A DNA stretch of 31,356 nucleotides, from the IMG/VR virus record IMGVR_UViG_3300046354_000026, positions 1-31,356 of that record. One strand, written 5' to 3'. The stretch comes from a virus. The notes under the pieces are model-generated. The model made no database searches. It was not told the origin of the DNA and worked only from the letters and a program-made list of their open reading frames with translations. Made by a program: the position numbers and the translations under genes. This document shows positions 1 to 26,646 of this stretch, in pieces; positions within the stretch are counted from its first letter, which is position 1, and each line of letters begins with the position of its first letter.

Positions 1-1
1 C

Positions 2-638: not shown

Positions 639-1229
639 ATGTCCAGAACTTTTTCTTACGCTCGCGTATCGACACTTGAACAAAATACAGATAATCAGAT
701 AAAACAAATCACAGATGCTGGATTTGCCATTCAAGAACATAGAATAGTTGTTGAAACTATTTCTGGATCTGTTCCAATTCTAAACCGTCCTGAATTTGTT
801 CGCCTCATGGATAAGATGGAACGTGACGATGTTTTAGTTGTAACTAAATTAGATCGCCTTGGAAGAGATGCTATAGATGTTAGTATTACTGTTGGTAAAT
901 TAGAAAAGTCTGGAATAAAAGTTCATTGCCTCGCTCTTGGCGGCGTTGACCTTACAAGTCCAGCTGGGAAAATGACAATGCATATTATCAATGCTGTTGC
1001 TCAATTCGAGCGGGAATTACTAATAGAGAGAACTCAAGCAGGATTAGCGGTTGCACGATCAAAAGGGATTAGATTAGGCAGGTCCCCTTCATTGACAAAA
1101 GAACAAGAAGAAAATGTCATTGAACGAATTGAAAACGGAGAAACAATTTCTGCTATAGCTAAATTCCACAAAACATCACGGCAAACCGTGAACAGAACAA
1201 AAGATAAATTTAACCCAACAAAACTTTAA
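639..1229 (+). CDS. Serine recombinase, small resolvase/DNA-invertase family
   Basis: This 196-residue protein has the size and layout of Hin/Gin/Tn3-resolvase enzymes, which cut and rejoin DNA through a phosphoserine intermediate. The N-terminal motif YARVST (7-12) supplies Arg9 and the nucleophile Ser11. The active-site arginines are in DRLGR (72-76). FERELLIERT (123-132) begins the long E helix that forms the dimer and synaptic interface. Residues about 150-190 form a C-terminal helix-turn-helix of the Hin type (ISAIAKFHKTSRQTVNR). The gene stands alone; a 45-bp dyad (560-604) lies just upstream. No clear Shine-Dalgarno precedes the ATG. It might invert a segment, resolve multimers or mobilise an element; no inverted copies of a crossover site were recognised within the window, so its target is unknown. 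Confidence 0.92.
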   Translation: MSRTFSYARVSTLEQNTDNQIKQITDAGFAIQEHRIVVETISGSVPILNRPEFVRLMDKMERDDVLVVTKLDRLGRDAIDVSITVGKLEKSGIKVHCLALGGVDLTSPAGKMTMHIINAVAQFERELLIERTQAGLAVARSKGIRLGRSPSLTKEQEENVIERIENGETISAIAKFHKTSRQTVNRTKDKFNPTKL

Positions 1230-1594: not shown

Positions 1595-2074
1595 ATGACA
1601 CTTTCTCAAAAACTTAGTGCTAAGGATATTTTTATATCTGAAGGACAACTCATAAATAGCAAAGAAGCTTCACATATCCTTGGGATATCAACCATTTGGT
1701 TTTATACAAAAATACGAACAAGCCAACTTATACTTCCCCATATAAAACTTAACGACAACAGAACAACAAGATTTAGAAAGTCTGATGTTTTAAAACTTAA
1801 AGAATCAATGAAACATGGAGGGAATAGATTTGATGAGGAATCCTCTGAAGAGAAAGCTTACCTAACGATAAGACAAACAGCAGATATGATTGGTGTTGTT
1901 GAAGGCACACTTTATGTTTGGCGTGCTAAAAAGAGATTCGCAGTTAAAAGTAAAAGAATTAATGGGCGAATTAGGTACAAAATGTGCGATATAAAAAAAT
2001 ATCTTGATTCAAAATCTACATTAAATGTTAAAAAAAGGGATATTCTCACGCCATTGAGCAAAACTACCCAATAA
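1595..2074 (+). CDS. Tandem MerR/excisionase-type helix-turn-helix protein
   Basis: The 159-residue protein contains two similar winged-helix modules of the excisionase/MerR (HTH_17) type. Module one is about residues 18-70 (INSKEASHILGIS then an RFRKSDVLKL wing end). Module two is about 88-138 (LTIRQTADMIGVVEGTLYVW then RIRYKMCDIKKYL). Each follows the usual order: recognition helices, basic turn, then a beta wing with R-x-R/K-x-x-D-I/V. Proteins with one such module are phage excisionases or small transcription regulators; two in one chain suggest binding to paired sites. The only Shine-Dalgarno-like sequence, AGGAG at 1571-1575, is too far upstream to be ideal, and no other in-frame start fits. 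The 3' end overlaps the convergent nuclease gene by 11 bp. A regulator of this module is my best guess. Confidence 0.7.
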   Translation: MTLSQKLSAKDIFISEGQLINSKEASHILGISTIWFYTKIRTSQLILPHIKLNDNRTTRFRKSDVLKLKESMKHGGNRFDEESSEEKAYLTIRQTADMIGVVEGTLYVWRAKKRFAVKSKRINGRIRYKMCDIKKYLDSKSTLNVKKRDILTPLSKTTQ

Positions 2075-2462
2075 TACCACATTCCTTTAAAACACTAAGT
2101 GCATCATCATATGAATAAGCTACTCTAAAGGGAACATTGGTATCGTCACACCACCTTTTAAATACTTCTTGGGATTCCTCTAATTTCTTTTTGCCAGCTT
2201 TTATCTCTAGGGCTAAGCATGTATCCCCCATAAATATATAATCAGCTACCCCTGCGAACTTACCTATGTTGCGCTGTCTAGCACCCCATATATGCTTTCC
2301 CGGTGCACTTCCTTCATTGGATACATGAAACCACACATGTTTGCACTTGCCCGTAATACTCATTTCTCTAAGATAAGCAGCAAGCTTTAAACAAATAAAC
2401 TCTTCAGGTTTAGGTGAGTGCGTGACTTTGCAGGTTTTCATAAAATTTATAAGGTAGATCAT
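2064..2462 (-). CDS. VRR-NUC domain nuclease (stand-alone)
   Basis: The 132-residue protein shows the stand-alone VRR-NUC pattern, a small PD-(D/E)XK-type nuclease fold common in phages. Visible motifs are HVSNEG (46-51), a glycine-rich stretch ending in Asp74 (GVADYIF), the E-I-K catalytic triplet (Glu86, Lys88) and Gln98 in the following helix (LEESQEVF). The family cuts DNA, probably branched structures such as replication or recombination intermediates, using divalent metal. The length is normal for phage members. The ATG at 2462 is the longest start; Met8 (ATG at 2441) is an alternative, and neither has a strong ribosome binding site. It is convergent with, and overlaps by 11 bp, the helix-turn-helix gene. 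Its neighbourhood next to replication-type genes fits a DNA-metabolism role. Confidence 0.8.
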   Translation of the reverse strand: MIYLINFMKTCKVTHSPKPEEFICLKLAAYLREMSITGKCKHVWFHVSNEGSAPGKHIWGARQRNIGKFAGVADYIFMGDTCLALEIKAGKKKLEESQEVFKRWCDDTNVPFRVAYSYDDALSVLKECGIIG

Positions 2463-2681: not shown

Positions 2682-3161
2682 ATGGAAACACAACTCACTA
2701 ATGAGGTGATAAACGACCCATTTTATCAGGGCGATTTGGCACTCATACCAAGGAGGCTTTCATCAAGGCTTGGGTTCTCAGCAGCAGTCCTTTTGTCTGA
2801 ACTACATGCAGATATAAAACATGATCTAGGATCTGTACATGAGGGCCGTATGTGGATCGGTAGATCTGCGGCAGCTTGGGGTAAAGCTATAGATTTTTCT
2901 GGACGGTCAATTGCGCGCATAACTAAATCTATGCTGGAGCTGGGCATTATCTCTGTTGAAAAGCTAGCCCCGCATAAAGGCAATCGAACAAACTATCTTA
3001 CAATAAATTACGATGCGTTAAATTTTGTTTTACAACAGCCACACAACCTCGTAAGAGGTAAACCAAGCTCTTATACTATAAATTACGATGCGTTAGATTT
3101 GGCCGAAAAAGAGCGCCCCGCAAAACAGCTACTCGAATGCGGATGCGAACACGAACACTAA
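2682..3161 (+). CDS. Winged-helix protein, truncated paralogue of the replication initiator
   Basis: Residues 53-110 of this 159-residue protein align without gaps to residues 48-105 of the initiator at 3327-4478, with at least 26 of 58 identical, including HEGR, SAxAWG, and NRTNYxxINY. This region looks like the winged-helix domain of phage and plasmid replication proteins. The C-terminal DnaA-I-like domain of the larger protein is absent. The tail carries an in-frame duplication: INYDAL occurs at 108-113 and 133-138, encoded by an 18-bp exact direct repeat 75 bp apart. AAAGG lies 9 bp before the ATG. It could compete with or regulate the initiator by binding the same DNA, or be an independent transcription factor. 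The paralogy is firm; the role is inferred. Confidence 0.65.
   Translation: METQLTNEVINDPFYQGDLALIPRRLSSRLGFSAAVLLSELHADIKHDLGSVHEGRMWIGRSAAAWGKAIDFSGRSIARITKSMLELGIISVEKLAPHKGNRTNYLTINYDALNFVLQQPHNLVRGKPSSYTINYDALDLAEKERPAKQLLECGCEHEH
3003..3095 (+). repeat. 18-bp exact in-frame direct repeat
   Basis: ATAAATTACGATGCGTTA occurs at 3003-3020 and again at 3078-3095. The 75-bp spacing keeps the reading frame, so the end of the winged-helix domain (TINYDAL) is repeated in the protein. Confidence 0.85.
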
Positions 3162-3292: not shown

Positions 3293-3328
3293 ATGGTGTA
3301 ACCCTTAATTGGAGTACACCATTTTTTT
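3293..3328 (+). terminator. Rho-independent terminator of the 2682 gene
   Basis: ATGGTGTA (3293-3300) pairs with TACACCAT (3315-3322), followed by a run of seven T (3322-3328). It is a good terminator on the plus strand, 130 bp after the 3161 stop, and it just touches the stop codon of the opposing initiator gene. The stretch 3162-3292 contains no gene I recognise. Confidence 0.75.
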
Positions 3329-4478
3329 ATGATAATATTTTGTTTAATAAATGACCAAATCTAACATTAATTTCATGTTCGATAAATTTATTATTTGCGT
3401 TCATATGCAAAAACCCGTCTATTTCCTCAAACTGAACCTGAGTAAACCAAGAAACATATGCGCAATTCCCTAGAATCTTTCGAATTAGATTTCTATCTTC
3501 CTTACATCTTTCACTTTCTTGAACATTAACTATGTGATCTAGTGCTTTTTTCTCAAATTGCTGTTCAGATGGAACCGCATTTGCTTTCATACTCTCAGAT
3601 ATCCCCATGACTGCGTCTATTTTCTTAAAATTAACTGCATCTTCAAGAGATGCAATGATTGACTCACCTATCTTATATGCTATTGATGGTAATTTCTTGC
3701 AATAATCCCTGAACTTTTCAAGGTTTTTGTCAAATTTGTGATTATACGCTGCCCAAAGGTATCTTTCCCTGTTCTCTTTCATCGTTAAAACAAGGTCTGT
3801 GCATTCTTCTTTAACAATATCCATCATCTGCATAGGAATAGTCTTATTTGATCGTGTAGGGTACGATTTAGACCTGTTTATAGCTAAACCAGTAGAACAT
3901 GCAGCTGTCTTTACGGGTTCAACTCGGTTTTGTGTTGTTGGTTTAACCTCTGGAATGAATTCTTTGATCTCTCCTTCCTCCTTGTTTTCAATTAAAACAG
4001 GAAGGGAACGCGGTGGAACATCCAGACTACCTTCTTCTTTTTCTTTGTATGTATTCCTTGTATAACCATCGAGACATTGCGTCTCGATGTCCGAGACGTT
4101 TTCTAGCGAGTTGGCTGACGAATCAATACCTTTACGCGATCCATCTAATTTACAAAGCCTTTCGTAGTTAATGGCGTAATAGTTTGTCCTGTTGGACTTA
4201 TTCTTTGCTAGGGTTTTCACTATCAGTACCCCATCTTTGATTAGATCCTGAACAATGCGGCTTGTCTGACGTTCAGAGAGACAAATTTGTTCGCCCCAAG
4301 CTCTCGCACTATTACTAACGAACCGTCTGCCTTCATGCATTACACCCATTCCTTTCCCAGCCCAGTACTCGATTTTATTAATTAATCTTGCCTTGCTTTG
4401 TCCAAACACTTTTACGTGGCTTGTTAGTGCAATCTGGACATATCCTGTATTTGTTAGGGGGAAATTTCTAGTAGCCAT
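3327..4478 (-). CDS. Replication initiator-like protein: winged helix plus DnaA domain I-like C-terminus
   Basis: The 383-residue protein has an N-terminal winged-helix domain (about 29-108), a polar linker (about 110-210), a helical middle, and a C-terminal domain (about 325-382). That last domain has the DnaA_N pattern: a helix with IRKILG, a YVSWF motif, two short strands around IDGFLHM, then NNKFIEHEI and a closing helix. DnaA domain I binds helicase and other DnaA molecules. Similar combinations occur in replication proteins of phages and of some alphaproteobacterial plasmids. No AAA+ domain is present, so it is not DnaA itself. TTAGGAG precedes the ATG at good spacing. The upstream region is full of palindromes and iteron-like repeats (4518-4675), fitting an origin or autoregulated promoter. 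I infer origin binding and helicase recruitment; a transcription regulator is the alternative. Confidence 0.65.
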   Translation of the reverse strand: MATRNFPLTNTGYVQIALTSHVKVFGQSKARLINKIEYWAGKGMGVMHEGRRFVSNSARAWGEQICLSERQTSRIVQDLIKDGVLIVKTLAKNKSNRTNYYAINYERLCKLDGSRKGIDSSANSLENVSDIETQCLDGYTRNTYKEKEEGSLDVPPRSLPVLIENKEEGEIKEFIPEVKPTTQNRVEPVKTAACSTGLAINRSKSYPTRSNKTIPMQMMDIVKEECTDLVLTMKENRERYLWAAYNHKFDKNLEKFRDYCKKLPSIAYKIGESIIASLEDAVNFKKIDAVMGISESMKANAVPSEQQFEKKALDHIVNVQESERCKEDRNLIRKILGNCAYVSWFTQVQFEEIDGFLHMNANNKFIEHEINVRFGHLLNKILS

Positions 4479-4517
4479 TTTTTATACTCCTAAGGTGTTA
4501 ATTAATAACTTGACTTG

Positions 4518-4590
4518 ACCCGGAGAAAGAGAGAAAATGTACTTATTCGTTAAGAGTTATTTCTCTGTTTTTTCTCCGTTTTCTCCGGGT
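4518..4590. repeat. Inverted repeat with iteron-like GGAGAAA motifs upstream of the initiator
   Basis: ACCCGGAGAAA (4518-4528) is the exact reverse complement of 4580-4590. Read on the minus strand, the distal arm continues as three related purine motifs, GGAGAAAA, CGGAGAAAA and CAGAGAAA (about 4588-4562); the proximal arm carries the same motif in inverse orientation. Iterons of this sort are bound by replication initiators. The structure would also form in the 5' leader of the initiator mRNA. Confidence 0.6.
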
Positions 4591-4599
4591 TAAAACTTT

Positions 4600-4631
4600 C
4601 ATTCTTAAGTAGTTTGTATATCTTAAGAATG
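4600..4631. repeat. 10-bp inverted repeat (CATTCTTAAG / CTTAAGAATG)
   Basis: CATTCTTAAG (4600-4609) and CTTAAGAATG (4622-4631) are perfect reverse complements, 12 bp apart, and each contains the palindrome CTTAAG. It lies in the same 337-bp intergenic region upstream of the initiator gene and suits a dimeric DNA-binding protein. Confidence 0.65.
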
Positions 4632-4633
4632 GA

Positions 4634-4650
4634 CCATCTAAGTTAGATGG
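4634..4650. repeat. 17-bp palindrome (CCATCTAA-G-TTAGATGG)
   Basis: Two perfect 8-bp arms flank one central base. It follows the previous inverted repeat by 2 bp. Further short palindromes, AACTATAGTT (4666-4675) and CGTACG (4676-4681), come next, followed by very AT-rich DNA to 4815. The cluster looks like an operator or origin. Confidence 0.65.
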
Positions 4651-4780
4651 ATATTAAAATTATTAAACTATAGTTCGTACGGTTGCAATAGAAATATTCT
4701 CCTACGGACTATTTTTTTATTCATTTTCTGAAAATAATCTATTCCACAGACTTTTATTTCTTCGCTACGATAATGTTTTT

Positions 4781-4786
4781 TATAAT
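4781..4786 (+). promoter_or_regulatory. Candidate -10 box for the 4870 gene
   Basis: A perfect TATAAT in the AT-rich stretch upstream of the secreted coiled-coil gene. No convincing -35 box is present at 16-18 bp, so this is weak support for a promoter. Confidence 0.3.
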
Positions 4787-4869
4787 CCATTAAAAAAGTG
4801 TTTGCATAAATTAAAATGTGTGCTAATGTTCAATCATTAATGTTACATAAAGACCTAGGAAGAGAGCCA

Positions 4870-5504: not shown

Positions 5505-7718
5505 CTATTCACCGTCATCTTTTCTTGCTTGATTCTTAAAAGATCTATATGCATTGCTTGACATTAGCTCCATAACAGATGGAGTTCTCATAAGAAGGTT
5601 AAAATGATTTGCTTGTGCTTTTGGGCTATTGGCTGTCATAACTTTATTTATGCGCGCTAAAAATGTTTGGTCGGTCATCAATTTTGCTGCTACTTTAGCA
5701 CCACCTAATGTTATTGCCATTGGTATAAATGCCTTAGCCCCTGCTATATATGCACCTGTAGCTAAATGTCCTCCAATAGCTCCCGATTTTTTAAGGTAAT
5801 CTATATAGCTAGCTGTATGTGCTGTTTTAGATGTATTGGCCATTGATTCCATAACCTTTTTATTATGACTCAAAAGATTTATTACCTTTTCAACACCCGC
5901 AGCAGCGTCTGGATTCTTGTATAGCTTTCTAAATTCTGCTCCATTGGTAACCTTAAATTTGTTAAAATTAGTAACCATTGAGGACAAGTTAAATTCTCCC
6001 CTACCCTTACTTCCCATCTCACCTAAAAGAGATTGTCTTAAATCCTCTAATCTATCTTGTGGGAGTCCCTTGCGGACGGTCTCTAGGTATTTTGGGTTTT
6101 TAGATAATAATCTTGCGAATGCCGATGAATCATCTTTCTTGTCAAGAAGTTCCTGTGCAAATTGTTTTTCGCCTAAATCTTTTTTAGATAGATTAGAAAC
6201 GTCTGTGCGACTATAGTCTGTCCAATCTTTACGTGCTTTCTTCGATGCGGCACTTTCTAACTTAGAACCGTTCATTTCTATGAAATCATGCCTTTTACTT
6301 GATAAATCTTTATATATTTTAGATGCTTCCCTGCGTTCATTGGATCCCGTAGGTAAACTATCTCTTATGTCTAGCATCTTGCCTCTGAATCGTTCTAATG
6401 ACCCATAAGGTATTTCTATATTTCTTGACCCGCTATCTTGTAAATATCCCTCTAATGTACTTAATGCTTTCCCCCGTATAGATGAGGCTGCTTCTTTAGT
6501 TTCAAATGCACCGCTTACCCCTAACCGTGATTCGTTTAATTTGTTATGTAAATCTGATACATCAACCATTTGTCTTGTTTCTGTAGCGTGTTTTTCAAAT
6601 GGCTCAAAATGTTCTTTAAGCTTTCCGTATTCCCTAGATTTTTTAGCTTTGAACCCTTGAGCGCCTTCATGTGCTAATTCATGTTGAATGCCTTTAGGAA
6701 TATCGTCTATTTGTATCTTTTCAAATCCCATCTTATCTAAGAACGCTCTTGTTCTATCTTGATAAAATGCCTTCATATGGCCACCTGCACCAGGTGTGTG
6801 ATATAAAATACTTTCTGTTGGACTTATTATCGGGTTCTTAGAAACAGATGCAAGACTTGCTGGTATCCCTGCTTCTACATGTTGCTTGTATAGTTCAGGA
6901 TTAAATCCAGACAATTTTCCAACGATCCTACTCCCAACATCTTTCGTTGTCTCCAGGGGTGCTTTAATAAACTTCGGGGCACCCTTTATAGCTCCGATTC
7001 CTGCACGGGAAAGGTAGTTAGCCCCCACGCCTCCGGCTGCACCTGCTAACAATGCACTTACGGTTGATGGATTTTCGTTGCCTTCTAAATAGTGATGAAC
7101 AGCACCAGTTCCACCTGCGGTACCCAAAAGATTTGCTTTGGATGGGGAGTACATTCCAGCTACAAAGTTTTGGGCTTTACCAAATTTTGTTGCTTTGTTT
7201 ATCAAATGCGGCGCCTTAATTAATGCCCCTCCAATTGGAATACTTGCAACTTCCTGTGTAATTGCAGATTTGAACCGTTCATGTCGTGATTTTGGCTTTG
7301 TATATCCGCCTGTTAATTCATCTACTCCTTCACTCACAATCTCTTGTGCGGGGCGCATCTGATATTCTGGATATCCTGATCTTCTTAAAGCAAAGTTTGC
7401 GCCTTCCCGAAGGGGCATTGTAAGCAAATCACCTAGCCCCATCGCTCCTGCTGTTATATCTTTTGCACCTCTTGCATAGCCTCTTGCTTCCCGTGCTAAG
7501 TACCCTTCATTTTCAAGATATCGTCCATCATCAGATTTCTTTTTTGATTTAGAAAGTTGTTTTAATTCTTCTGTGGCATCGCCTTTTGAATATTTTGACA
7601 ACTGCCTTTCTAAGTCTTTTATTTCATCATCAATTGGATCAGATTTGCGAGGTGATTTATTTCCTAATTGCGCCAATTCTCTTTCTAAATCTTCTATTTC
7701 TTTATCAATAGCATCCAT
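5505..7718 (-). CDS. Large internal virion (ejection) protein candidate, last gene of the late operon
   Basis: The 737-residue protein begins with two copies of an acidic/basic helical motif, IDKEIEDLERELAQL (4-18) and IDDEIKDLERQLSKY (29-43). It then has a long region of glycine- and alanine-rich hydrophobic helices (about 85-270), charged helical stretches, and another hydrophobic segment near 650-685. No enzyme motif is seen. Proteins of this size and make-up at the end of the tail module of P22-like phages are ejected with the DNA and help it cross the cell envelope (P22 has gp7, gp16 and gp20). The Shine-Dalgarno GAGGGG overlaps the stop of the preceding gene, 5 bp away, so the two are probably translated together. 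Assignment rests on position and composition, not on recognised homology. Confidence 0.5.
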   Translation of the reverse strand: MDAIDKEIEDLERELAQLGNKSPRKSDPIDDEIKDLERQLSKYSKGDATEELKQLSKSKKKSDDGRYLENEGYLAREARGYARGAKDITAGAMGLGDLLTMPLREGANFALRRSGYPEYQMRPAQEIVSEGVDELTGGYTKPKSRHERFKSAITQEVASIPIGGALIKAPHLINKATKFGKAQNFVAGMYSPSKANLLGTAGGTGAVHHYLEGNENPSTVSALLAGAAGGVGANYLSRAGIGAIKGAPKFIKAPLETTKDVGSRIVGKLSGFNPELYKQHVEAGIPASLASVSKNPIISPTESILYHTPGAGGHMKAFYQDRTRAFLDKMGFEKIQIDDIPKGIQHELAHEGAQGFKAKKSREYGKLKEHFEPFEKHATETRQMVDVSDLHNKLNESRLGVSGAFETKEAASSIRGKALSTLEGYLQDSGSRNIEIPYGSLERFRGKMLDIRDSLPTGSNERREASKIYKDLSSKRHDFIEMNGSKLESAASKKARKDWTDYSRTDVSNLSKKDLGEKQFAQELLDKKDDSSAFARLLSKNPKYLETVRKGLPQDRLEDLRQSLLGEMGSKGRGEFNLSSMVTNFNKFKVTNGAEFRKLYKNPDAAAGVEKVINLLSHNKKVMESMANTSKTAHTASYIDYLKKSGAIGGHLATGAYIAGAKAFIPMAITLGGAKVAAKLMTDQTFLARINKVMTANSPKAQANHFNLLMRTPSVMELMSSNAYRSFKNQARKDDGE

Positions 7719-7723
7719 TTATA

Positions 7724-10700
7724 TTACCCCTCACCCATTTGTTTTCTAGCATTAGCAACAGCAATCCTAAGGGAATCTCTCTTAGCTATACGCGAATCAT
7801 CTATTTGGTCATACTTTCCTACCGGTGAGATTTCATCTTTATATTTAGGGGCTGATGCGCCTTCTAGAATAGTTTGTACATATTCAGATATATCACCTTC
7901 TTTGCCATTTTTTTTCCATTGATCATATGCTGCAAAGCTTACACGTGGCGGGATATTATACGCAGCAAAATCTGTTGCAACTTGATCTCGCTCAATAAGG
8001 TCTCCGTAATGCTCTTTCCCAACTTTAGCAAACTTTTCTACTACTTCTGGAGAATCAAGTTCTGTTGGCTTTAATCCTTTTGCAAAGGCAAGCTTAGCAT
8101 TTGTCAGAACACCCGATGGCAATTCGCCAGAAACCATTTTTTCAAGACGCCGTTCATATTCTTTTGAAAGATCACTAACATTTGGTGAATATTTTGCAAG
8201 TGTACCAGTAGAGGGCAATTCCCCTATCTCCCTTTGATTCTTCAGGAAATCGACCATTTCTTTATATCCGTACTTCTTGCTTTCGTTCAATTCTTTGTTC
8301 TTTTCGATTGTCTTTAGCTGGGATAGATCTTGTGGTGACAATCCTGTCTTGTTTCTTGGCTTTATAGTCTTCTCACCAATTTGTATCTCTTCAGGAATAT
8401 TTTTACCCCTTAAAGCATCTATTTGAGCTTTCTTGTATTCAAGATCTAAAATATCTCCCTCAGACATCGGAGCATTATCTTTAGCATAATTTGCACCCTC
8501 AGTCGCTCTATGATGACGCGCTTGTTCAGATCTTTGTTCCTCAGCATCATGGAAATTTGCAAGAAGTTTCTCTTGAGAGTGTCTGCTGTTATCTAGAGCT
8601 TGGTAAACATTAGCGGCCTTTAACTTTGCGTCAATTTGCCTATTTCTATGAAGATTCATATGATCCTCTGCAGTTTGAGCCCCTCTCCCAATGTTCTCCA
8701 TCGGGTTCCCTCTGGTATTTGAGAGCATTTGCGATGACACATGCTGTAGCCAATTTGTTAGAGGATCTACGCGCTCATTCCTAAGTTCTGACGCTATACC
8801 TGCCTGTTGTGATTCATATTTGCTGTCTGGCAACCCTTGCATCATTTGCGCATATCTTTGTGCCGGTGATTGGACAAGTCCACCTGGGGCTAACTTCCTT
8901 TTGATTAGTCCGCCAGCTTTAGCATTTTGATTCTGCAATCTATTCATAGCTACCATTTGTCCTAGCATCCCACCTGCTGCATTATATGGGTTAGGTGGTG
9001 TTGGTGGAGCACCAAGTTGAGATCTTGCACCTTCATATTTTTGTATGGTTGGCGCCTCAATACCAGCTGCAATGTTTGCATATGTAGCTAGTCTGTCTCT
9101 TTCTTCATTCTGCATTTCATTATAGGCAGCGCGTCTTTGGTTAATTTCTTGCTGCGCTTGATGTTGCTGTTGGTGTGCAAACTGGCTGACTGCTGAAACG
9201 TCTTCTTTGTTTGTTTCCTTTTGTAGGAGTGCTGTATCTCTCGCCTCATGAGCTGCCTTTAGGTTAGCCTCATGCTGCATCTTTTCAGCTTGGGCAACGA
9301 GTGGTGAGGCTTGTAATGTCATAGCATTTTGTTGCTCTGCTCTCTTATACGCATCTTCAAGACCAGTATGTCTTAGCTTCATGATATCTCTATTAAGCTG
9401 TTCTTGAGCTTTCAACGCATGCTTATGCAGTGTATTTTGTCTTGCTCCTGTATGGAACCCACCACTAGCCGCAAAATTACCTGTAATTGATGGCAGTACC
9501 TCTTCCAAGAAGTTTTTTTGTGCGTCCCCTCTCATCGCTTCAATAACATCTTCATTATGTCTATTTACATACGGATCAAGCATTTGATGTGTTGGAGTTA
9601 GTCCCCTTGCAATGAGTGCTTTTGCTTCTCCTGCAATATCTCTATTCCTAGCCGCTTCTATTTCTTCCTTTGAGAGTTTAAACGATTCATCTTGGCTACC
9701 AATGTTTCGTTGAACCATGCGTCGTGCTTGTTCATGCAGTTGGTTCATTGGTGCAACACGACCAAATTGAGATAGAACGTGTTCTGTTGCTGAGGGAACA
9801 TTTAGTCTTTGGAATAGGTTCTCGTCGCTATCCCTTTTGATATTCAATGGATCATTCAAAAATTGATAGTTTTGAGCTGTAATATCGTCTTCAAATGCAG
9901 AAATAGCGTTAGCTGCGGCATTTATATCTGCAGGATTGCTGTCTGGCACTGAGGCTGGATGTAATGTAGAAATCTTTCTTAAGTACGAATCGCCTTCAGG
10001 ATGCCCTTGGGCGTGGTAAGCAGAATTTTCTGCAACCTGAATTGCATTGTTATATGGAATTGATGCCTCCTGAACATCATTTTTTGCGGCCTGAATTTTC
10101 GAATCATATATACTTTTGGCTTTTTCATACTTATCATAAGCATTCAAGCTGTCAAAGAAACCCGAAAAATATGAAGGGCTCAATTCCCCAGTATTTATCA
10201 TAGATTGAGCCTGAGCGCGGTTAACCCTAGAGCCACCTTGCAAGGGAAAAGTATCCGAAGGCTTGGCTACGTATGCTGGCGCCTCTTGAGCCACTTGTTC
10301 ATATTTATTAAGAGACTCCTTATATAAACCTTGGGAGGATCTAAGTTTCTTTTCGGCTTCGTGAAGGTTAATAATCTCTGGAGCTGTGCCACTTTGTGCT
10401 TCATATGCTTCTTGCTTGTCCAACATGTCATCAAGTTGTGGGATTTGATAAACTATTCGATTTCTAAATTCAGCAATATCGTTTTCTGGTGTTCCATGAA
10501 TACCCGTGGATTTTTCATAAACACGCTTTGCAAAAGTTTCATCTTCTGAGGCACGCTTTAGCTGAGCTGGCGTAAAGAATACTGGTTCGTCCGAACCAGT
10601 TATAGAAAATGGGATAGCAAAGGGCGAATTAATAAGATTAGCTTGTGCCTTTAGTCTTTGAATTTCACCCGATAAGGCCCTTTGTGCTTGTGGATCAAGA

Positions 10701-10966
10701 CCATAAGGGCTATCTTCCTGACGTGAAAGTGCTTCTGCTCTTTGCAAAAGCTTTTCTTTCATTTGAGCATACCAAAGGGGTGCCCCTGTAAATGTTACTC
10801 CATCGCCCGGCGCTGCTGATGCATAGCCAGATGATTGAGCTGCTGCAAGTGGGGTTGGTGCTGGTGCAGCCCTAGGTGCCCGCTGCAACAAGTTTGCGCC
10901 GGGCATGTTCATACTTTGCGCAGAACCCGGGACATTACCAGTTAATAAATCCATTAATCCAGGCAT
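7724..10966 (-). CDS. Very large internal virion (ejection) protein candidate
   Basis: The 1080-residue protein has a Pro/Ala/Ser-rich start (about 30-55), then mostly polar helices, with a Gln/Ala/Glu-rich coiled-coil zone (about 540-640, for example AHQQQHQAQQEINQRR). A Gly/Pro hinge follows (about 660-700, AGGLIKRKLAPGGLVQ) and then a charged second half. No transmembrane segment or catalytic motif is apparent. It is encoded between two other candidate ejection proteins, 3 bp after one stop and 5 bp before the next start. Long, mainly helical proteins at this place are typical of the internal core or ejection machinery of short-tailed phages. A tape-measure role is unlikely because the tail parts are P22-like. 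Function is inferred from context. Confidence 0.5.
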   Translation of the reverse strand: MPGLMDLLTGNVPGSAQSMNMPGANLLQRAPRAAPAPTPLAAAQSSGYASAAPGDGVTFTGAPLWYAQMKEKLLQRAEALSRQEDSPYGLDPQAQRALSGEIQRLKAQANLINSPFAIPFSITGSDEPVFFTPAQLKRASEDETFAKRVYEKSTGIHGTPENDIAEFRNRIVYQIPQLDDMLDKQEAYEAQSGTAPEIINLHEAEKKLRSSQGLYKESLNKYEQVAQEAPAYVAKPSDTFPLQGGSRVNRAQAQSMINTGELSPSYFSGFFDSLNAYDKYEKAKSIYDSKIQAAKNDVQEASIPYNNAIQVAENSAYHAQGHPEGDSYLRKISTLHPASVPDSNPADINAAANAISAFEDDITAQNYQFLNDPLNIKRDSDENLFQRLNVPSATEHVLSQFGRVAPMNQLHEQARRMVQRNIGSQDESFKLSKEEIEAARNRDIAGEAKALIARGLTPTHQMLDPYVNRHNEDVIEAMRGDAQKNFLEEVLPSITGNFAASGGFHTGARQNTLHKHALKAQEQLNRDIMKLRHTGLEDAYKRAEQQNAMTLQASPLVAQAEKMQHEANLKAAHEARDTALLQKETNKEDVSAVSQFAHQQQHQAQQEINQRRAAYNEMQNEERDRLATYANIAAGIEAPTIQKYEGARSQLGAPPTPPNPYNAAGGMLGQMVAMNRLQNQNAKAGGLIKRKLAPGGLVQSPAQRYAQMMQGLPDSKYESQQAGIASELRNERVDPLTNWLQHVSSQMLSNTRGNPMENIGRGAQTAEDHMNLHRNRQIDAKLKAANVYQALDNSRHSQEKLLANFHDAEEQRSEQARHHRATEGANYAKDNAPMSEGDILDLEYKKAQIDALRGKNIPEEIQIGEKTIKPRNKTGLSPQDLSQLKTIEKNKELNESKKYGYKEMVDFLKNQREIGELPSTGTLAKYSPNVSDLSKEYERRLEKMVSGELPSGVLTNAKLAFAKGLKPTELDSPEVVEKFAKVGKEHYGDLIERDQVATDFAAYNIPPRVSFAAYDQWKKNGKEGDISEYVQTILEGASAPKYKDEISPVGKYDQIDDSRIAKRDSLRIAVANARKQMGEG

Positions 10967-10969
10967 TGT

Positions 10970-12679
10970 CTATTTCCCCTTCATGTAAAATTCTGGGTTT
11001 TTTGACTTTGGAGGTAGTCTATTCCCATTACTATTTTTATGTGATCGTAAGCTATTCACCATCTGCTTAAGCATCTTAGAGCCCTTAGCATTTGATCCAC
11101 CCCCTAAAATAGAGACGGTAACGGGATCAAATTTATATTCATCATTTGATAGCCAAACGGGAAGCTGCGGAGATCTTGAAACAACATGTTCTTCAATTTT
11201 AACATATTTGTTTTTAGGAATGCTCCGTCTAAGTTTTTCTTCAAAACTCTTTAAGATCTTTCCTCCAGCATCACTAGATCCATCGCCAAACATAGATGTT
11301 GAGGATGCATCAATAATATACGATCCTTCTGGAACATGTGTTTTAATAAGGTCTTGTTGCCCTTTACCAGGACCTTTTACCAACGTTCCCTTGTTGTATG
11401 ATTTAACGTTACCACCCCTATAATGTGCCGTAGCTCCATCTTCTAAAAATGGAGAGGCTGTATAAACACCATGTTTAGAAAGAGATTTGTTTTGTTGGTT
11501 AAAGAAATCTCTATTAACTGTTTTGGGTTTAGCCTCAATTGTTGTCCATGGTCGAGCAAGACCCATAGAGTCTCTGTATGCTGCACCTTTTGCCGATTCT
11601 TCATCATGTGCTTTCTTCTGTGCTTCATACATTTCTTTTTCATGCTTGTGTTGCTTTTGCTCCCCCATCATTCCAAGAGCAGAAATACCACCTTGTACGA
11701 GCATTGGATTATTCATTAAATTTGAAAAGAATCCAGCTTTTGCAGCAGCTGGTGCGGCAGCCGCTGGTGCTGCGGACATGGCCCCTGTTCCTATTTTCCC
11801 TGCAGCACCTGCTGCAAGTGACGGTGCACCTGATGCTGCTGTACCGGCTACGCTTCCAGTTCCAGCACCTGCAGCCCCAGCTGCGGTTGACCCCATGCCA
11901 AGCATGCCAGAAAGTCCAGCAAATCCCCCACCGGGAGCGGCGGCACCATTGGCGCCTAGCATTCCATTCATCATTCCCATTTTCGAACCAGCTGCAGCGC
12001 CTTGACCAACGCCCATACCTCCCAGAGCTGCTCCACCTAGATAGGCCATCCCACCCATTTTTGCACCTGCCATTGCAGCATCTCCTGGCTTTTGACCTGT
12101 GATCATACCTGCAGCTGCACGGCCTAGACCTGCTCCAATTGGGCCGCCAAAGTATGCACCAACGACTGTTCCAACACCACGGATGATTTCATGGAACCAC
12201 CCAAACTCTAAAAGTCCACTATGTGGGTTAATGCTTGCAGTCGGTATTAACTGCAAAAAGAACTCAGCTAAATCATATGGGATAAGAGCAAGCCTTGTAT
12301 CTGGATGCCTACCGAGCTTTTCTAGTTTCTCAATTTCTGTGCTCGATCTTTCAATTGGCGTTTCTCTAAATGGAGTCATCTTATCTTCGATTTTGGTTAG
12401 CTTATTAATTGATGCTGGCAATTTACCAGTTTTTTCAACTTGTCGTGTAATGCCTTCAAAGATCTGTCTAACCTCTGGTATTTTTATAAGTTCTGAAAGG
12501 GAAGAATATTCTCTTAATCCTGTTGCTGGATCAATTGATACTCCCCCTTGCAGTTTATCAAGGCCTTGCAATTCACCATTAGCAAAATGGCATAAAAGCA
12601 TTGGTTGTTGTTTGGGCTTTCTTGCTTTCTTTTGTCTTTCCCTTTCAAAGGGAGCTATTGGTAAATTGTTATTAGCCAT
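10970..12679 (-). CDS. Ejection protein candidate with glycine/alanine-rich membrane region
   Basis: This 569-residue protein starts with a basic stretch (RERQKKARKPKQQ, 13-25). Residues 31-68 align without gaps to residues 61-98 of the next upstream protein (12694-13851), 18 of 38 identical (HFxxxELxxLDxLQG, then PxxGxRxYxxLxELxKxP). Residues about 165-330 are an extreme Gly/Ala/Met-rich hydrophobic region (GTVVGAYFGGPIGAG onward), as expected for a protein that inserts into membranes. The last part has a hydrophilic domain including VKGPGKGQQDLIKTHVPEGS and a basic C-terminus. I infer a role in making the DNA passage through the inner membrane. A partial overlap in function with its paralogue is likely. 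Confidence 0.55.
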   Translation of the reverse strand: MANNNLPIAPFERERQKKARKPKQQPMLLCHFANGELQGLDKLQGGVSIDPATGLREYSSLSELIKIPEVRQIFEGITRQVEKTGKLPASINKLTKIEDKMTPFRETPIERSSTEIEKLEKLGRHPDTRLALIPYDLAEFFLQLIPTASINPHSGLLEFGWFHEIIRGVGTVVGAYFGGPIGAGLGRAAAGMITGQKPGDAAMAGAKMGGMAYLGGAALGGMGVGQGAAAGSKMGMMNGMLGANGAAAPGGGFAGLSGMLGMGSTAAGAAGAGTGSVAGTAASGAPSLAAGAAGKIGTGAMSAAPAAAAPAAAKAGFFSNLMNNPMLVQGGISALGMMGEQKQHKHEKEMYEAQKKAHDEESAKGAAYRDSMGLARPWTTIEAKPKTVNRDFFNQQNKSLSKHGVYTASPFLEDGATAHYRGGNVKSYNKGTLVKGPGKGQQDLIKTHVPEGSYIIDASSTSMFGDGSSDAGGKILKSFEEKLRRSIPKNKYVKIEEHVVSRSPQLPVWLSNDEYKFDPVTVSILGGGSNAKGSKMLKQMVNSLRSHKNSNGNRLPPKSKNPEFYMKGK

Positions 12680-12693
12680 GATGATATCTTTCT

Positions 12694-13851
12694 TTATTGG
12701 TAGCTAGGCTGGAAACCTGGTTGAGCGAGTTGTTCTTGTTCTGGCTGTTGCTGTTGTTGCTGGCCCATCATTGCGTTATAAGCAGCTCTACCCGCATTTT
12801 GTGCAATCCCTTTTGGAGCCGTTCCAGCGGAATAATCAGAGGCAGCGCCTCTTGCTATATTTTGTAAAGCTGGTGTACCGCCTGCCCCTTGATACATACC
12901 CATTGCTGTGTTTTTAGCCGTGTCTAGTAGTCCGCGTCCTTGTTGAACTGACCCACCAAGGCTTTGCAGACCACCACCAAAGGCGCCGGGCAACATAGAC
13001 CCAACCTTTGATACGCCCGCACCAGCACTTTGAATTGGGCTCATGCCAGCTTGTCTAGCTGCAACTCCTGCTTGCAATCCTTGACCCAAGCCACTAGCAA
13101 TTGCTTGATTCTGGTCCGATCCCATCCCTTGCAGATAGTCCAAACCTTGGTTAGCAAGGCCTCCAAGACCTTCAGCAGCTTTTGCCCCAAGATCTCCACC
13201 ATATCGAGACGCAAGACCTTGTATTGCTGGCATGGCGGCAGGAAGAATAGCTTTACCGAAGGCTCCGATATAAGGAGCAGCTTGTTGAGCACCACTTTTA
13301 ATTGTGTTCCAAAGACCGCCTAATGTACCGCCTAAAGACCAATACTGAGGGCGTCCGTCAATATGGTTCGTAAGCGTTCCGGGTGCTGCTAGGCTACTAA
13401 GAACATGGTTTGTATGTGGACCAATAAGAGCTAATTCACTGTCTCCATGAACGCCATGTCCAGCCATAGCATTTAAACTAGGATTTCCATATCCGCCTGC
13501 TGATCCACCGGATGCATGATGAGCTCGAGCATGTTGGTGAACAGATGATAGAATATGTGGGTTCTTTAAAAGTTCTTCTAGATGGGTATAAGATCTCATA
13601 CCGGAGCGAGGACACTTTTCTATCTTCCCTTGGAGGTGATCTAGGACATCTAGTTCTTTAGGGTTGAAGTGAGCCATAACAAGCTTCCCTCGCTTCGTTC
13701 TTCCGCCATGAGCGTAAGCATTTGGCATAGTTGCCATTGATGAAGCGGGGGCAAATTGTTGGCGTGGTTCCATTGCGTTTTGTGGTTGTGATAGGCCAGC
13801 AGATGACGGCATGGAATTCATGCTGCCTGGTGTTGCGTTTAGTGGATACAT
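12694..13851 (-). CDS. Ejection protein candidate, paralogue of the 10970-12679 product
   Basis: The 385-residue protein has a Met/Pro/Ser-rich N-terminus, then the shared domain (61-98; see the downstream paralogue) and a second shared stretch with DSELALI, paralleling DTRLALI in the paralogue. From about 170 on it is Gly/Ala-rich and hydrophobic (LGGTLGGLWNTIKSGAQQAAPYIG), ending in a Gln-rich tail (MGQQQQQQPEQEQ). A clear Shine-Dalgarno (GGAGAACCCC before the ATG) is present. The gene sits 14 bp after the 84-aa gene and 14 bp before the paralogue. The same overall build, recognition-like N-terminal domain plus membrane-active region, suggests that both came from one duplicated gene and act together during DNA injection. 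Confidence 0.55.
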   Translation of the reverse strand: MYPLNATPGSMNSMPSSAGLSQPQNAMEPRQQFAPASSMATMPNAYAHGGRTKRGKLVMAHFNPKELDVLDHLQGKIEKCPRSGMRSYTHLEELLKNPHILSSVHQHARAHHASGGSAGGYGNPSLNAMAGHGVHGDSELALIGPHTNHVLSSLAAPGTLTNHIDGRPQYWSLGGTLGGLWNTIKSGAQQAAPYIGAFGKAILPAAMPAIQGLASRYGGDLGAKAAEGLGGLANQGLDYLQGMGSDQNQAIASGLGQGLQAGVAARQAGMSPIQSAGAGVSKVGSMLPGAFGGGLQSLGGSVQQGRGLLDTAKNTAMGMYQGAGGTPALQNIARGAASDYSAGTAPKGIAQNAGRAAYNAMMGQQQQQQPEQEQLAQPGFQPSYQ

Positions 13852-13865
13852 GGGGTTCTCCTTGT

Positions 13866-14120
13866 TTATGTATTTGTTAAATTGTTGACGCTATCAATAA
13901 AGTACGATGCCCAGATCTTCCAGTCGTCCTCGTTTGGGTAACAAAGAGCGGTAGGGACAGGGACAAATGATAGCGCGTTATCGTTCACGACCTGAGATGC
14001 CCATTCTCTCCAGTTGCGAACATTGCCCGCAATAGGGAGGGTTATATTGGGCATATCTTGTCTTAGTTGGTCGCTCCAATTTTTGAAATTAATGCCAATG
14101 GGCAGGACTACATTTGACAT
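13866..14120 (-). CDS. Small protein with three Trp-containing repeats (84 aa), function unknown
   Basis: The protein is made of three imperfect units of about 25-28 residues: VVLPIGINFKNWSDQL, ITLPIAGNVRNWREWASQVV, and VPVPTALCYPNEDDWKIWASYF. Each ends in W-x-x-W-A or a similar helix. The start codon shares one base with the stop of the tail-hub gene (TAATG), a sign of coupled translation. Position between the hub and the ejection proteins suggests a virion or assembly role, perhaps at the tail tip; no family is recognised. Confidence 0.6.
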   Translation of the reverse strand: MSNVVLPIGINFKNWSDQLRQDMPNITLPIAGNVRNWREWASQVVNDNALSFVPVPTALCYPNEDDWKIWASYFIDSVNNLTNT

Positions 14121-15676
14121 TATTTAAATGTGTCTCCTTTCTCAAAGAAATAAAGACTCTTGCCCTCTTGATAGAATCCGCCAGCTTCATTGCTTCTGAA
14201 CAAAAAGCTAATAATCCCACCTTGAGACGCAAAATCTATCTTTTCAGTTGATGTTGTAAAAGGGTAAGGACCATCACTAACAATTGGACTATTAGGATAT
14301 TTTTGAGTGTTAATGGTCACGTACATTGTCCCTACTTGGACAAAATCTGGAGCTATACGACGGTTTCTAAGAAGGACACTGCCTTCAGGATTAGAAGCCC
14401 ACATATCCATCTGGCTTGTCTCAAAGTAAGAATCGATCGCGTATATATTCTCACCTTGAACCCTATTTGTTCCAATCTCATGTGTCCAAAGAGGGAACGT
14501 ATCAAGTGCCCCACGTGTTGTTATCGTGCTTACTGGAATAGATGAAGCAAAAATAGGATACGGGTATATAGACGTTGGAACTCCTGCAGATCTATCTATA
14601 AGTGTGTCATACCAAATTTCTTCTTCCAAATTGTAAATAATAGCTGCATTACATTCTGTCGAATTACCACGAGGATAAAACCACCAGATCTCTTTATAGC
14701 GCGGCATAGCAACGCCCCAAATCTTTTGGCGAAAGTTCAAGTTAACGTTTTCAAAGAACCAGTCATTGTTCATGGTATTTTGAAGCTTTTGAACGATTCC
14801 ATTGAAAAAATAGAATTGATCAACACCGATCCAAAAAAACATTTGGTTGTATTTAACAATGCAATTGGACGACATAATTGAAATGTCATCTTCAATTGTT
14901 GTACTCGTAAACGTATTTTCAGTTCCAATTATCCCGTATGTTGCCCTGCTTAAGCTATTAAGCGACCATAACAAGAGACTTGGTGCTGCTCCGCCTCTGT
15001 TTCTATACGCTTTTACAATCTTTGTATTTGCAACAACAAGGAATTTCGCATTCGTTAGTGAATCGAGTGGTTCCCATGTAGCTATATCACCTTCATTTGA
15101 CCATCTAATGACGCCATCGTTTCCGTAAGCCACCATAACAGGCGATGAAAATACGACACCTCCGCTTGCAACAACTGGATCAGAGTTTGTATCTAATATT
15201 TGTACGAGAGGGACATCATTAGAAATATTCCCATAAAATATAGGCCCTTGATGTGTGCTGCTTATATCTTGTCCGCTTTGGGATACCTGACCAACGATAT
15301 AAGAGGTAATAACACCACTTTCAGAGTTTGTAAAAAGATCAAAACACCAGATATTATCATCATTTGGAACAAATCCCGTCGTTGGTGTTCTATCTACTTC
15401 AACACCTGTCCCACCGTGAACATCTATATTTAGATAATTTAAAGAATTATCACGCCCCATATACAGGTCAATAGATCCAGTACGAGGAACAACAAATAGG
15501 CTTCTGACTATTTCTTCATTTCCTACGTCGGTTATCTCATATCCACCCATTTTACGGGCACATCCTTCATAGAAACGACACCATTGACCATTAATACAGC
15601 TCACACTATTATACGGCGTTCCATCGCGCTGTATGCCGTTTTTGAACTTTATGGGTACGATGTTGTAATTTTTCAT
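14120..15676 (-). CDS. P22 gp10-like tail hub / packaged-DNA stabilisation protein
   Basis: The 518-residue protein has the pattern of the Phage_stabilise (P22 gp10) family: an N-terminal IVPIKFKNGIQRDGTPYNSV segment, the CINGQWCRFYEGCARKMGGY motif, repeated beta strands with many Trp, Phe and Tyr (blade-like repeats such as PVMVAYGNDGVIRWSNEGD and CIVKYNQMFFWIGVDQFYFF), and NLEEEIWYDT near 345. P22 gp10 is about 470 residues and forms the hexameric hub that closes the portal and holds the packaged DNA; this protein is slightly longer. The start overlaps the lysozyme stop (ATGA). The gp4-like factor at 24421 is its expected partner. Confidence 0.78.
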   Translation of the reverse strand: MKNYNIVPIKFKNGIQRDGTPYNSVSCINGQWCRFYEGCARKMGGYEITDVGNEEIVRSLFVVPRTGSIDLYMGRDNSLNYLNIDVHGGTGVEVDRTPTTGFVPNDDNIWCFDLFTNSESGVITSYIVGQVSQSGQDISSTHQGPIFYGNISNDVPLVQILDTNSDPVVASGGVVFSSPVMVAYGNDGVIRWSNEGDIATWEPLDSLTNAKFLVVANTKIVKAYRNRGGAAPSLLLWSLNSLSRATYGIIGTENTFTSTTIEDDISIMSSNCIVKYNQMFFWIGVDQFYFFNGIVQKLQNTMNNDWFFENVNLNFRQKIWGVAMPRYKEIWWFYPRGNSTECNAAIIYNLEEEIWYDTLIDRSAGVPTSIYPYPIFASSIPVSTITTRGALDTFPLWTHEIGTNRVQGENIYAIDSYFETSQMDMWASNPEGSVLLRNRRIAPDFVQVGTMYVTINTQKYPNSPIVSDGPYPFTTSTEKIDFASQGGIISFLFRSNEAGGFYQEGKSLYFFEKGDTFK

Positions 15677-16170
15677 TGAGCAGCCCTTTTAAGCCAACCC
15701 TTAAGAAATACGGCATTCTTAGGATTACGAACCACAAGTTCCCTATAAAAATTAGCTATTTTCTCTCTAAACTTTTCAAGCAATTGTTCCGGTCTTCCTT
15801 GATTAATTTCCCCAAATGTTATTGTTCCCATAATCCCGTCAACATGAAGCCCGCCATGCGCTTGTTGTAGTAGTTTTACAGCTTGCTTGTGACCCATGTT
15901 TACAGACATATCAAAAAGCTTTTGGGCTACATCGAAGTTTCTAATTTTATCAAAATTGTACTTATCCCAGAAATCCTTCTTATAGATACCGACAGCTTCG
16001 CTACGCGTTAGGTTCTCAATATCCAAATTAGGATATGTTCTCTTTGTGATACCAAAATTAGTTTCCCCACCGGAATCATTAGGGTTATTTACATATCCGC
16101 CTTCATTGTTAATGACATGATTTATGATCTTTATGTGGCGCTCTATTTTATCTTCTTTATTTGGTTCCAT
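15673..16170 (-). CDS. GH108 lysozyme (endolysin)
   Basis: The 165-residue protein matches the ZliS/GH108 peptidoglycan hydrolase family: EGGYVNNPNDSGGETNFGIT (23-42), with Glu23 as the expected catalytic acid, then TRSEAVGIYKKDFWDKY, FDMSVNMG, and a C-terminal PG_binding_3-type part with VDGIMGTITFGEIN (113-126). It cleaves the glycan strands of the cell wall. No signal peptide or membrane anchor is present, so release needs a holin; the candidate is at 1230-1382. The gene directly abuts the second tail fibre stop and overlaps the tail hub by 4 bp. Its place within the tail genes leaves open whether it lyses the host at the end, or is also a virion part that opens the wall at entry. Confidence 0.88.
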   Translation of the reverse strand: MEPNKEDKIERHIKIINHVINNEGGYVNNPNDSGGETNFGITKRTYPNLDIENLTRSEAVGIYKKDFWDKYNFDKIRNFDVAQKLFDMSVNMGHKQAVKLLQQAHGGLHVDGIMGTITFGEINQGRPEQLLEKFREKIANFYRELVVRNPKNAVFLKGWLKRAAQ

Positions 16171-18348: not shown

Positions 18349-18983
18349 TATCCACCCCTTTTACTAAATCCGTCGTATATTCGACGCATGTCTTCTTCAC
18401 TTAATGCCTTCTTGGCAACTTCATAATATTGGGTCCAAACGGCTACTCGGTCATCATCTTTTAGATAAGATGCCGTCTCTAAAAGCGTTGCATAAAGCAA
18501 GATATCTGGTGCATTTTCAGTTAGCCAGTTTGTTGAAACAGTACTATCAATCAATTGTGGGACTTGGTAATAAGCAATTTCATATGGATAGGCTAAATCA
18601 GGTGTAGGGGTAATCAACCAGTGATTGAAATCATAATCACTGTAATATTTTGGTTGTGCTGTTTGCGTTGGGTCGGGCCAGTACATACGACAATATTCAT
18701 ATGACCTTTGAAGGACTTGGACACGGGTATTAAATCCCGTGCCTGTTCCAATGTTAAATGATGACGAGTTCAACCAACGGTTAGGTTTTTGCAATGTCTC
18801 TTGCCCTACAAGGAGGGTATCCGTAATGAAAACCTTGAGTCCTAAGATTTTCAAATCACGTGATACTCTTCTTTCCCCAAGCATAATAAACAAGGGGATT
18901 TCTGAAACAAACGGTGAGTCTATGCGTTCGAGGTAATTCTCAATCGCTGTTACAAGGTTTGTGTAGGTTAAGACATATGCCAT
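18348..18983 (-). CDS. Phage adaptor-like protein (SU10-adaptor type)
   Basis: The 211-residue protein begins with a helical part (TNLVTAIENYLERID, then EIPLFIMLGERRVSRDLKIL), has a beta-rich middle with PTPDLAYPYEIAYYQVPQ, and ends with a helical NAPDILLYATLLETASYLKDDD stretch. This is the usual pattern of the small head-to-tail adaptor proteins that sit below the portal in podoviruses and siphoviruses. A second, different gp4-like factor is encoded at 24421-25506. The ATG lies 4 bp after the stop of the large fibre and the stop overlaps the start of the second fibre. Placement between two fibre genes is unusual for an adaptor, so a fibre-attachment role is also possible. Confidence 0.55.
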   Translation of the reverse strand: MAYVLTYTNLVTAIENYLERIDSPFVSEIPLFIMLGERRVSRDLKILGLKVFITDTLLVGQETLQKPNRWLNSSSFNIGTGTGFNTRVQVLQRSYEYCRMYWPDPTQTAQPKYYSDYDFNHWLITPTPDLAYPYEIAYYQVPQLIDSTVSTNWLTENAPDILLYATLLETASYLKDDDRVAVWTQYYEVAKKALSEEDMRRIYDGFSKRGG

Positions 18984-18987
18984 CTAG

Positions 18988-23847: not shown

Positions 23848-23858
23848 TGTGGGCTCCT

Positions 23859-24413: not shown

Positions 24414-24420
24414 TTATCCC

Positions 24421-25506: not shown

Positions 25507-25539
25507 GACTTATAAAAGCCTATCTTGGGTTAAACCCTT

Positions 25540-26645: not shown

Positions 26646-26646
26646 T

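What the first reader, a model, noticed from the sequence alone, without database searches (positions are those of the whole stretch)
3327..4815. Replication initiator with a DnaA domain I-like end and a palindrome-rich upstream region: possible phage-plasmid replicon
Seen: a winged helix at the N-terminus, a C-terminal region with the DnaA_N pattern (IRKILG, YVSWF, NNKFIEHEI), no AAA+ domain, and a 337-bp upstream region with three inverted repeats. Known: DnaA domain I recruits helicase, and initiators often sit beside their origin. Inference: the phage replicates from its own origin next to this gene, possibly as a plasmid in a lysogenic state.
Basis: partly seen in the sequence, partly recalled or inferred. 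Interest (0 to 1): 0.65.

Follow-up and report, generated by a model that had tools for sequence, protein, structure and literature searches.

The report
Phage replication initiator borrowing a DnaA domain
This virus of a probable intracellular alphaproteobacterium carries a replication-starter protein that ends in a copy of the piece bacteria use (in DnaA) to call in their DNA-unwinding enzyme, and close relatives of the protein run plasmids of microbes living inside protists, which suggests how some viruses and plasmids hijack the host's copying machinery.

Summary
The 383-aa ORF (3327-4478, minus) has an N-terminal winged helix of the phage O-like/DnaD-like kind, no AAA+ domain, and a C-terminal 55-75 aa DnaA domain I. 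Pfam alone scores that domain below its cut-off (21.1 vs 24.6 bits), but family evidence is strong. Four relatives score above the cut-off. A profile built without the window retrieves both the window and genuine DnaA. The helicase-contact residue Phe46 is conserved in 6 of 7 members. The upstream 337 bp contains real inverted repeats and a short repeat cluster.

The protein belongs to an unnamed family shared by phages and plasmids of Rickettsiales/Holosporales. Its best full-length match is the initiator of a 15-kb Paracaedibacter plasmid, next to parA. A serine recombinase 65% identical to alphaproteobacterial plasmid recombinases lies 2 kb away. The window's capsid protein matches only three of 72,556 plasmids, all circular plasmids of protist endosymbionts. 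No DnaB, family A polymerase or tyrosine integrase was found in the window.

Best reading: a theta-type initiator that binds a nearby origin and recruits host DnaB through a borrowed DnaA domain I. A plasmid prophage state is plausible but unproven; origin function is untested.

The parts
3327..4478 (-). Replication initiator, 383 aa: winged helix + (degenerate) central domain + DnaA domain I
4128..4424 (-). Winged-helix DNA-binding domain (residues 19-117)
   Evidence: PHROG matches; AF2 pLDDT about 90; Foldseek neighbours RepA_N Rep N-domains 4pql/5kbj/4pt7 and DnaD-N 2v79 (none below E 1e-3)
3609..3839 (-). Central domain (about residues 214-290), related to the C-terminal part of phage O-like/DnaD-like loaders; motif degenerate in this copy
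   Evidence: alignments; PHROG 19658/345/10469 matches to the same part of relatives
3330..3566 (-). C-terminal DnaA domain I (residues 305-383)
4479..4815 (.). Intergenic region, 28% GC, with three inverted repeats: candidate origin and/or operator
4521..4587 (.). Repeat cluster TTTCTCCG: 4521-4528 (-), 4571-4578 (+), 4580-4587 (+) exact, 4560-4567 (+) with one mismatch; candidate initiator binding sites
   Evidence: an 8-mer seen at least 3 times in 30 of 2000 shuffles
2682..3161 (+). Second winged-helix ORF, 159 aa, 39-40% identical to the initiator's winged helix, no DnaA_N: possible truncated regulator of replication
639..1229 (+). Serine recombinase, 196 aa (resolvase/invertase type), 64-66% identical to recombinases on alphaproteobacterial plasmids
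1595..2074 (+). DNA-binding protein with two HTH_17-type domains (excisionase/MerR-like)
2064..2462 (-). Small nuclease-like protein (phrog_824; weak matches to endonuclease and Holliday-junction-resolvase families)
   Evidence: homologues in relatives G005 and G013
5505..31268 (-). Virion module (major capsid protein 27806-28711, head/tail and tail-fibre genes, lysozyme-like ORF 15673-16170); terminase and portal lie outside the record

Best explanation
The ORF is a theta-type replication initiator of a phage of a (probably intracellular) alphaproteobacterium. Its winged helix binds the phage origin, most likely the repeat-rich 4479-4815 region next to the gene. Its C-terminal DnaA domain I then recruits the host DnaB helicase directly, so the phage, which appears to bring no helicase or family A polymerase, can enter the host replisome without a full DnaA. 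The same initiator type drives plasmids of Rickettsiales/Holosporales. With a plasmid-type serine recombinase nearby and no tyrosine integrase seen, the phage may persist as a plasmid prophage. Shown: domain make-up, family, distribution, related virion genes on circular plasmids. Inferred: origin position, DnaB contact, plasmid state.
For: Winged helix of phage initiator families (AF2). DnaA domain I; relatives above the Pfam cut-off are G010 28.4, G021 25.2 and Ac37b 38.0 and G359 40.7. A scan of 398 Pseudomonadota genomes with the family profile gave one full match (G359: ParA, RHH protein, initiator); the other 88 matching genomes matched essentially the DnaA_N half, nearly all in ORFs of 448-644 aa, which I take to be chromosomal dnaA. 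Phe46 equivalent kept in 6 of 7; Glu21 and Phe46 contact DnaB in E. coli (PMC5448010). Plasmid homologues beside parA: Paracaedibacter, full length, 29%, 3e-27; Bandiella x2. Initiator-type gene and resolvase together in the window, G021 and G012 (in G012 a winged-helix protein without DnaA_N); G012 also has two ParA-type ATPases. No DnaB, no family A polymerase, integrase only in G013. Capsid, head and tail homologues on circular plasmids of Bealeia and Megaera; terminase and portal of relatives G001/G004 match there too.
Against: The window's own Pfam DnaA_N score is below the curated cut-off, and Foldseek finds no hit below E 1e-3 (2e0g has the best probability, 0.66, but rank 4 by E-value). 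The central-domain motif is degenerate in this copy. Glu21 is not conserved (3 of 7), though the two alphaproteobacterial DnaA examined also have Val there. No parA in the 31 kb. No upstream repeat shared with relatives was seen. Direct DnaB contact is inferred only.
Confidence: 0.72

Rival explanations
1. An ordinary lambda-O-like lytic origin-binding protein in a phage with no plasmid stage; the extra DnaA domain I only improves helicase recruitment during lytic growth.
For: Relative G004 (47 kb, with terminal repeat) has the same architecture without resolvase, ParA or integrase; the winged helix and central domain match phage O-like/DnaD-like families.
Against: The window also carries a plasmid-type recombinase; the best full-length homologue is a plasmid initiator; virion homologues lie on circular plasmids.
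Confidence: 0.4
2. The domain binds host DnaA (domain I to domain I) rather than DnaB, loading or titrating DnaA at the phage origin or on the host's.
For: DnaA domain I also dimerises (Trp6 in E. coli) and is a docking site for regulators (PMC5448010).
Against: The Trp6 position is Cys in the window and aromatic in only 2 of 7 members; no TTWTNCACA box anywhere in the window.
Confidence: 0.15
3. The serine recombinase is a tail-fibre invertase or transposon resolvase and tells nothing about plasmid maintenance.
For: phrog_125 'DNA invertase' and NCBIfam invertase-like matches below cut-off; long tail-fibre genes are present.
Against: No convincing long inverted repeats flanking a segment (best 24 nt at 83%); nearest relatives are recombinases on alphaproteobacterial plasmids; recombinases also sit on plasmids with related initiators.
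Confidence: 0.4
4. The gene is a decaying or regulatory relic: a transcriptional repressor with a leftover DnaA-like tail.
For: Central motif degenerate; a shorter winged-helix paralogue lies beside it.
Against: Intact 383-codon frame; the DnaA_N core residues are kept; the full architecture is kept at only 22-30% identity across phages and plasmids.
Confidence: 0.08

Closest known systems
Initiator of the Candidatus Paracaedibacter acanthamoebae plasmid NZ_CP008942.1 (and Bandiella, Rickettsiales Ac37b plasmids, genome G359)
   Same: Winged helix and central domain; DnaA_N in Paracaedibacter (16.3 bits), Ac37b (38.0) and G359 (40.7); close to parA in Paracaedibacter, Bandiella and G359
   Different: Plasmid-borne; 29% identity; Bandiella proteins show no DnaA_N match; in Ac37b the two halves are separate overlapping ORFs
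Phage O-like / DnaD-like initiators (phrog_6493, 428, 678, 345)
   Same: Winged helix; central domain in relatives of the window protein
   Different: No DnaA domain I was seen by eye in those read; none of the 31 matching GenBank phage records covers 80% of the query
RepA_N plasmid initiators (pSK41, pTZ2162, PLE RepA)
   Same: Similar winged-helix N-domain by fold and the same logic: DNA-binding N-domain plus a host-specific C-domain (PMC5703833, PMC7145576)
   Different: No PF06970 match; the C-domain is DnaA domain I instead of the five-helix CTD that binds DnaG
DnaA, domain I (2e0g, 4tps)
   Same: C-terminal domain homologous; Trp25 and Phe46 equivalents kept
   Different: No AAA+ domain, no domain IV; the domain sits at the opposite end of the protein
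Rickettsia plasmid 'DnaA-like' initiators (pRF, pRAM18)
   Same: Plasmid initiators named after DnaA, paired with parA, enough for replication in vectors (PMC3244465, PMC1800911)
   Different: Their sequences were not obtained here (pRF record not held), so homology to this family was not tested

Membership tests
DnaA (chromosomal initiator) | AAA+ ATPase domain and domain IV (Bac_DnaA_C) | tested here: not met
   No match in the window protein, while the control E. coli DnaA shows both
DnaA (chromosomal initiator) | Domain I (DnaA_N) present | tested here: met
   (below cut-off)
Phage O-like / DnaD-like initiator | N-terminal winged helix of this family | tested here: met
   phrog_6493 1.6e-14, phrog_428 1.3e-13
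Phage O-like / DnaD-like initiator | Conserved C-terminal/central domain | tested here: inconclusive
   Clear in relatives; aligned but degenerate in the window
RepA_N plasmid initiator | PF06970 RepA_N domain | tested here: not met
   No Pfam match; weak fold similarity only
Phage-plasmid | Virion genes plus plasmid-type replication gene on one element | tested here: met
Phage-plasmid | Partition genes (parA/parB) | tested here: inconclusive
   None in the 31-kb fragment; present in relative G012 and on related circular plasmids
Phage-plasmid | Extrachromosomal circular prophage | not testable with these tools
   No reads; the related virion module does occur on circular plasmids
Phage-plasmid | No integrase | tested here: inconclusive
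   No Phage_integrase match in the record, but the record is a fragment
Replication origin at 4479-4815 | Repeats bound by the initiator, autonomous replication | tested here: inconclusive
   Repeats exceed shuffles; binding and replication not testable here

The most novel reading that the evidence does not exclude
DnaA domain I is a portable helicase-docking module. Phages and plasmids of intracellular alphaproteobacteria have appended it to O-like/DnaD-like initiators, in some lineages as a separate small gene, making a DnaA-bypass replicon shared by conjugative plasmids and a lineage of phage-plasmids of protist endosymbionts.
Probability: 0.5. Interest if true: 0.65.

Novelty: new variant of a known kind. 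Interest (0 to 1): 0.55.

Why it matters
How initiators of the RepA_N/DnaD-like type bring in the replisome is stated to be unknown, with C-domains thought to be host-specific (PMC7145576). Here the C-domain is recognisable: it is the host's own helicase-recruiting module. That turns the question into a direct protein-interaction test and gives a sequence handle (winged helix + DnaA_N) for finding replicons in endosymbionts whose plasmid genes are mostly annotated 'hypothetical'. It also ties a phage lineage to circular plasmids of Bealeia and Megaera, one of which carries R-body genes of the kind behind the Paramecium killer trait.

Tried and rejected
Single-sequence PDB search with the full protein: nothing. 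A C-terminal model searched by Foldseek: no hit below 1e-3; the DnaA domain I structure 2e0g has the best probability but is rank 4 by E-value. Cumulative GC skew: minima lie far from the initiator in linear records, uninformative. DnaA boxes: none in the window. Tail-protein query in viral contigs: no relatives. Invertible segment for the serine recombinase: none convincing. Res-like sites around the recombinase: nothing above A/T-rich background except an 18-nt inverted repeat 1478-1495/1513-1530. Tree of initiators: unresolved, only shows that the plasmid rows do not form one clade. Megaera plasmids' 350-356 aa protein tested as a homologous initiator: no similarity. DnaA_N part against GenBank phages: no match. 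Rickettsia pRF record: not in the collection. Window capsid protein in genome G359: no match. PADLOC scan of the left-end genes: only a weak HTH match.

Full report
Observation. The ORF at 3327-4478 (minus, 383 aa) is real. Its N-terminal third matches phage replication-initiation and DnaD-like loader families and folds as a winged helix with high confidence (residues 19-117, pLDDT about 90). Nearest solved structures by Foldseek are RepA_N initiator N-domains (4pql, 5kbj, 4pt7) and DnaD-N (2v79), though none passes E 1e-3. There is no AAA+ match. The C-terminus gives Pfam DnaA_N at E 2.6e-4 but under the curated cut-off (21.1 vs 24.6 bits), so I tested it further.

DnaA domain I. Relatives with the same layout give the same hit at or near the C-terminal end, some above the cut-off: phages G010 28.4 and G021 25.2, plasmid Ac37b 38.0, genome G359 40.7; G004 20.4 and Paracaedibacter 16.3 are below it. 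A profile of six relatives without the window scores the window 36.9 bits, Rhizobium DnaA 48.0, Shinella DnaA 37.9 and E. coli DnaA 22.9; the best of 2000 shuffled tails scores 10.1. hhalign of the family tail (window included) against three DnaA domain I sequences: 97.8%, E 8e-13. The top three PDB matches of the family profile are DnaA (2e0g 5.7e-4, 4tps 0.008, 8btg 0.073). Searching 398 Pseudomonadota genomes with the central + tail profile gave one full-length match and 88 other genomes that matched essentially the tail half, nearly all in ORFs of 448-644 aa; from size and the part matched I take these to be dnaA, they were not annotated. The predicted fold is a-a-a-b-b-a, pLDDT 80. In the alignment Trp25 is kept in 7 of 7 members, Phe46 in 6 of 7 (Tyr in Paracaedibacter), Glu21 in 3 of 7 and Trp6 in 2 of 7. 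In E. coli, Glu21 and Phe46 contact DnaB and Trp6 serves dimerisation (PMC5448010). The pattern fits helicase docking better than DnaA-DnaA dimerisation; this step is inference.

Central domain. Relatives match the C-terminal part of O-like/DnaD-like loaders (phrog_19658, 345, 10469). In the window this stretch aligns but its motif is degenerate. So the family is a common phage-type initiator with an extra DnaA domain I. In G005 the tail is a separate ORF overlapping by 4 bases, and in Ac37b the winged helix and central+tail parts are separate overlapping ORFs, so the parts behave as modules, or these are frameshifts.

Who has it. By BLAST the window protein's best full-length match is the Paracaedibacter plasmid initiator (22-378, 29%, 3e-27), then phage G004. 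In Paracaedibacter, Bandiella numerosa, Bandiella woodruffii and G359 a parA gene is a close neighbour. The Paracaedibacter and B. woodruffii plasmids also carry a serine recombinase. The G359 contig carries genes that look like a conjugative type IV secretion system (my reading of the ORFs). No GenBank phage record covers 80% of the query.

The phage. The record is a linear IMG/VR fragment of 31356 bp. Virion genes are syntenic with relatives; six of the relatives fetched show terminal repeats and are 47-54 kb (G003, G004, G010, G013, G016, G019). The proteomes of relatives show terminase, portal, SSB and an ERF-like protein (read by eye). DnaB was found in none of 16 records and family A polymerase in none of 11; other polymerase families were not searched. 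Tyrosine integrase was found only in G013. The window, G021 and G012 carry a resolvase-type recombinase; G012 also has two ParA-type ATPases. The window's recombinase is 64-66% identical to recombinases on Roseobacter-group and Megaera plasmids.

Phage-plasmid question. The window's capsid protein hits only 3 of 72,556 plasmid records: Bealeia paramacronuclearis pBealeia1 (57.5 kb, 45.6%), and two Megaera polyxenophila plasmids (64 and 109 kb, 36%), all circular (topology). Several head and tail proteins of the window match the same plasmids, and the terminase and portal of relatives G001 and G004 do so too. pBealeia1 has a ParA-type ATPase beside a protein with the family's central domain only (no winged-helix or DnaA_N match), and R-body genes; the Megaera NDG2 plasmid has ParA and a terminase but a non-homologous candidate initiator. 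R-bodies being linked to plasmids and phages is known (PMC11909080). So the virion lineage does live on plasmids; whether this phage does is not shown. G004 warns that the initiator also occurs without any plasmid gene.

Upstream region. 4479-4815 (28% GC) has three inverted repeats, folds far better than shuffles (z -4.9), holds two perfect hairpins (23 of 2000 shuffles reach this) and one 8-mer, TTTCTCCG, three times (30 of 2000). This is more than chance but modest, and promoters or operators would look alike. Of 621 overlapping 337-bp placements along the record, 12 reach two hairpins, so the feature is uncommon but not clearly unique.

Verdict. Observation confirmed; interpretation partly supported. 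Novelty: a new variant (a known initiator type with a DnaA domain I added), not a new kind. I found no description of this layout in the papers searched, a library limited to open-licence articles.

Noticed in passing
window 5243-5314 (+): ARAGORN calls a tRNA with a four-base anticodon TCTA (would read UAGA; 8-base anticodon loop by my reading); Rfam's tRNA model does not reach its threshold. Possible suppressor or degenerate tRNA.
   Followed up: partly
window 1-523: BspA-type leucine-rich repeats run off the left end; the nearest phage relative G001 also starts with a leucine-rich-repeat gene (33% identity) and has ankyrin-like repeat proteins, as in symbionts of eukaryotes.
   Followed up: partly
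L171 2344-4635 (pBealeia1): Six RebB-family R-body genes on a circular plasmid that also carries virion genes related to the window's phage; the terminase match there is only partial (134 aa), so the phage part may be decayed.
   Followed up: partly
L172, L173 (Megaera polyxenophila NDG2 plasmid unnamed2): A 64-kb circular plasmid with terminase, portal, capsid and tail homologues plus ParA: looks like a phage-plasmid.
   Followed up: partly
L014 4992-5291: Dense repeats (ACATTTGT / ACAAATGT) between parA and the RHH gene next to the Paracaedibacter initiator, possibly an operator or partition site.
   Followed up: no
G012 34774-57141: Relative with two ParA genes, a resolvase and duplicated accessory blocks; may hold two fused plasmid-like replicons in one phage.
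   Followed up: no
window 1478-1530: 18-nt inverted repeat (83%, 17-nt loop) between the recombinase and the HTH gene; could be a terminator or a recombinase site.
   Followed up: no
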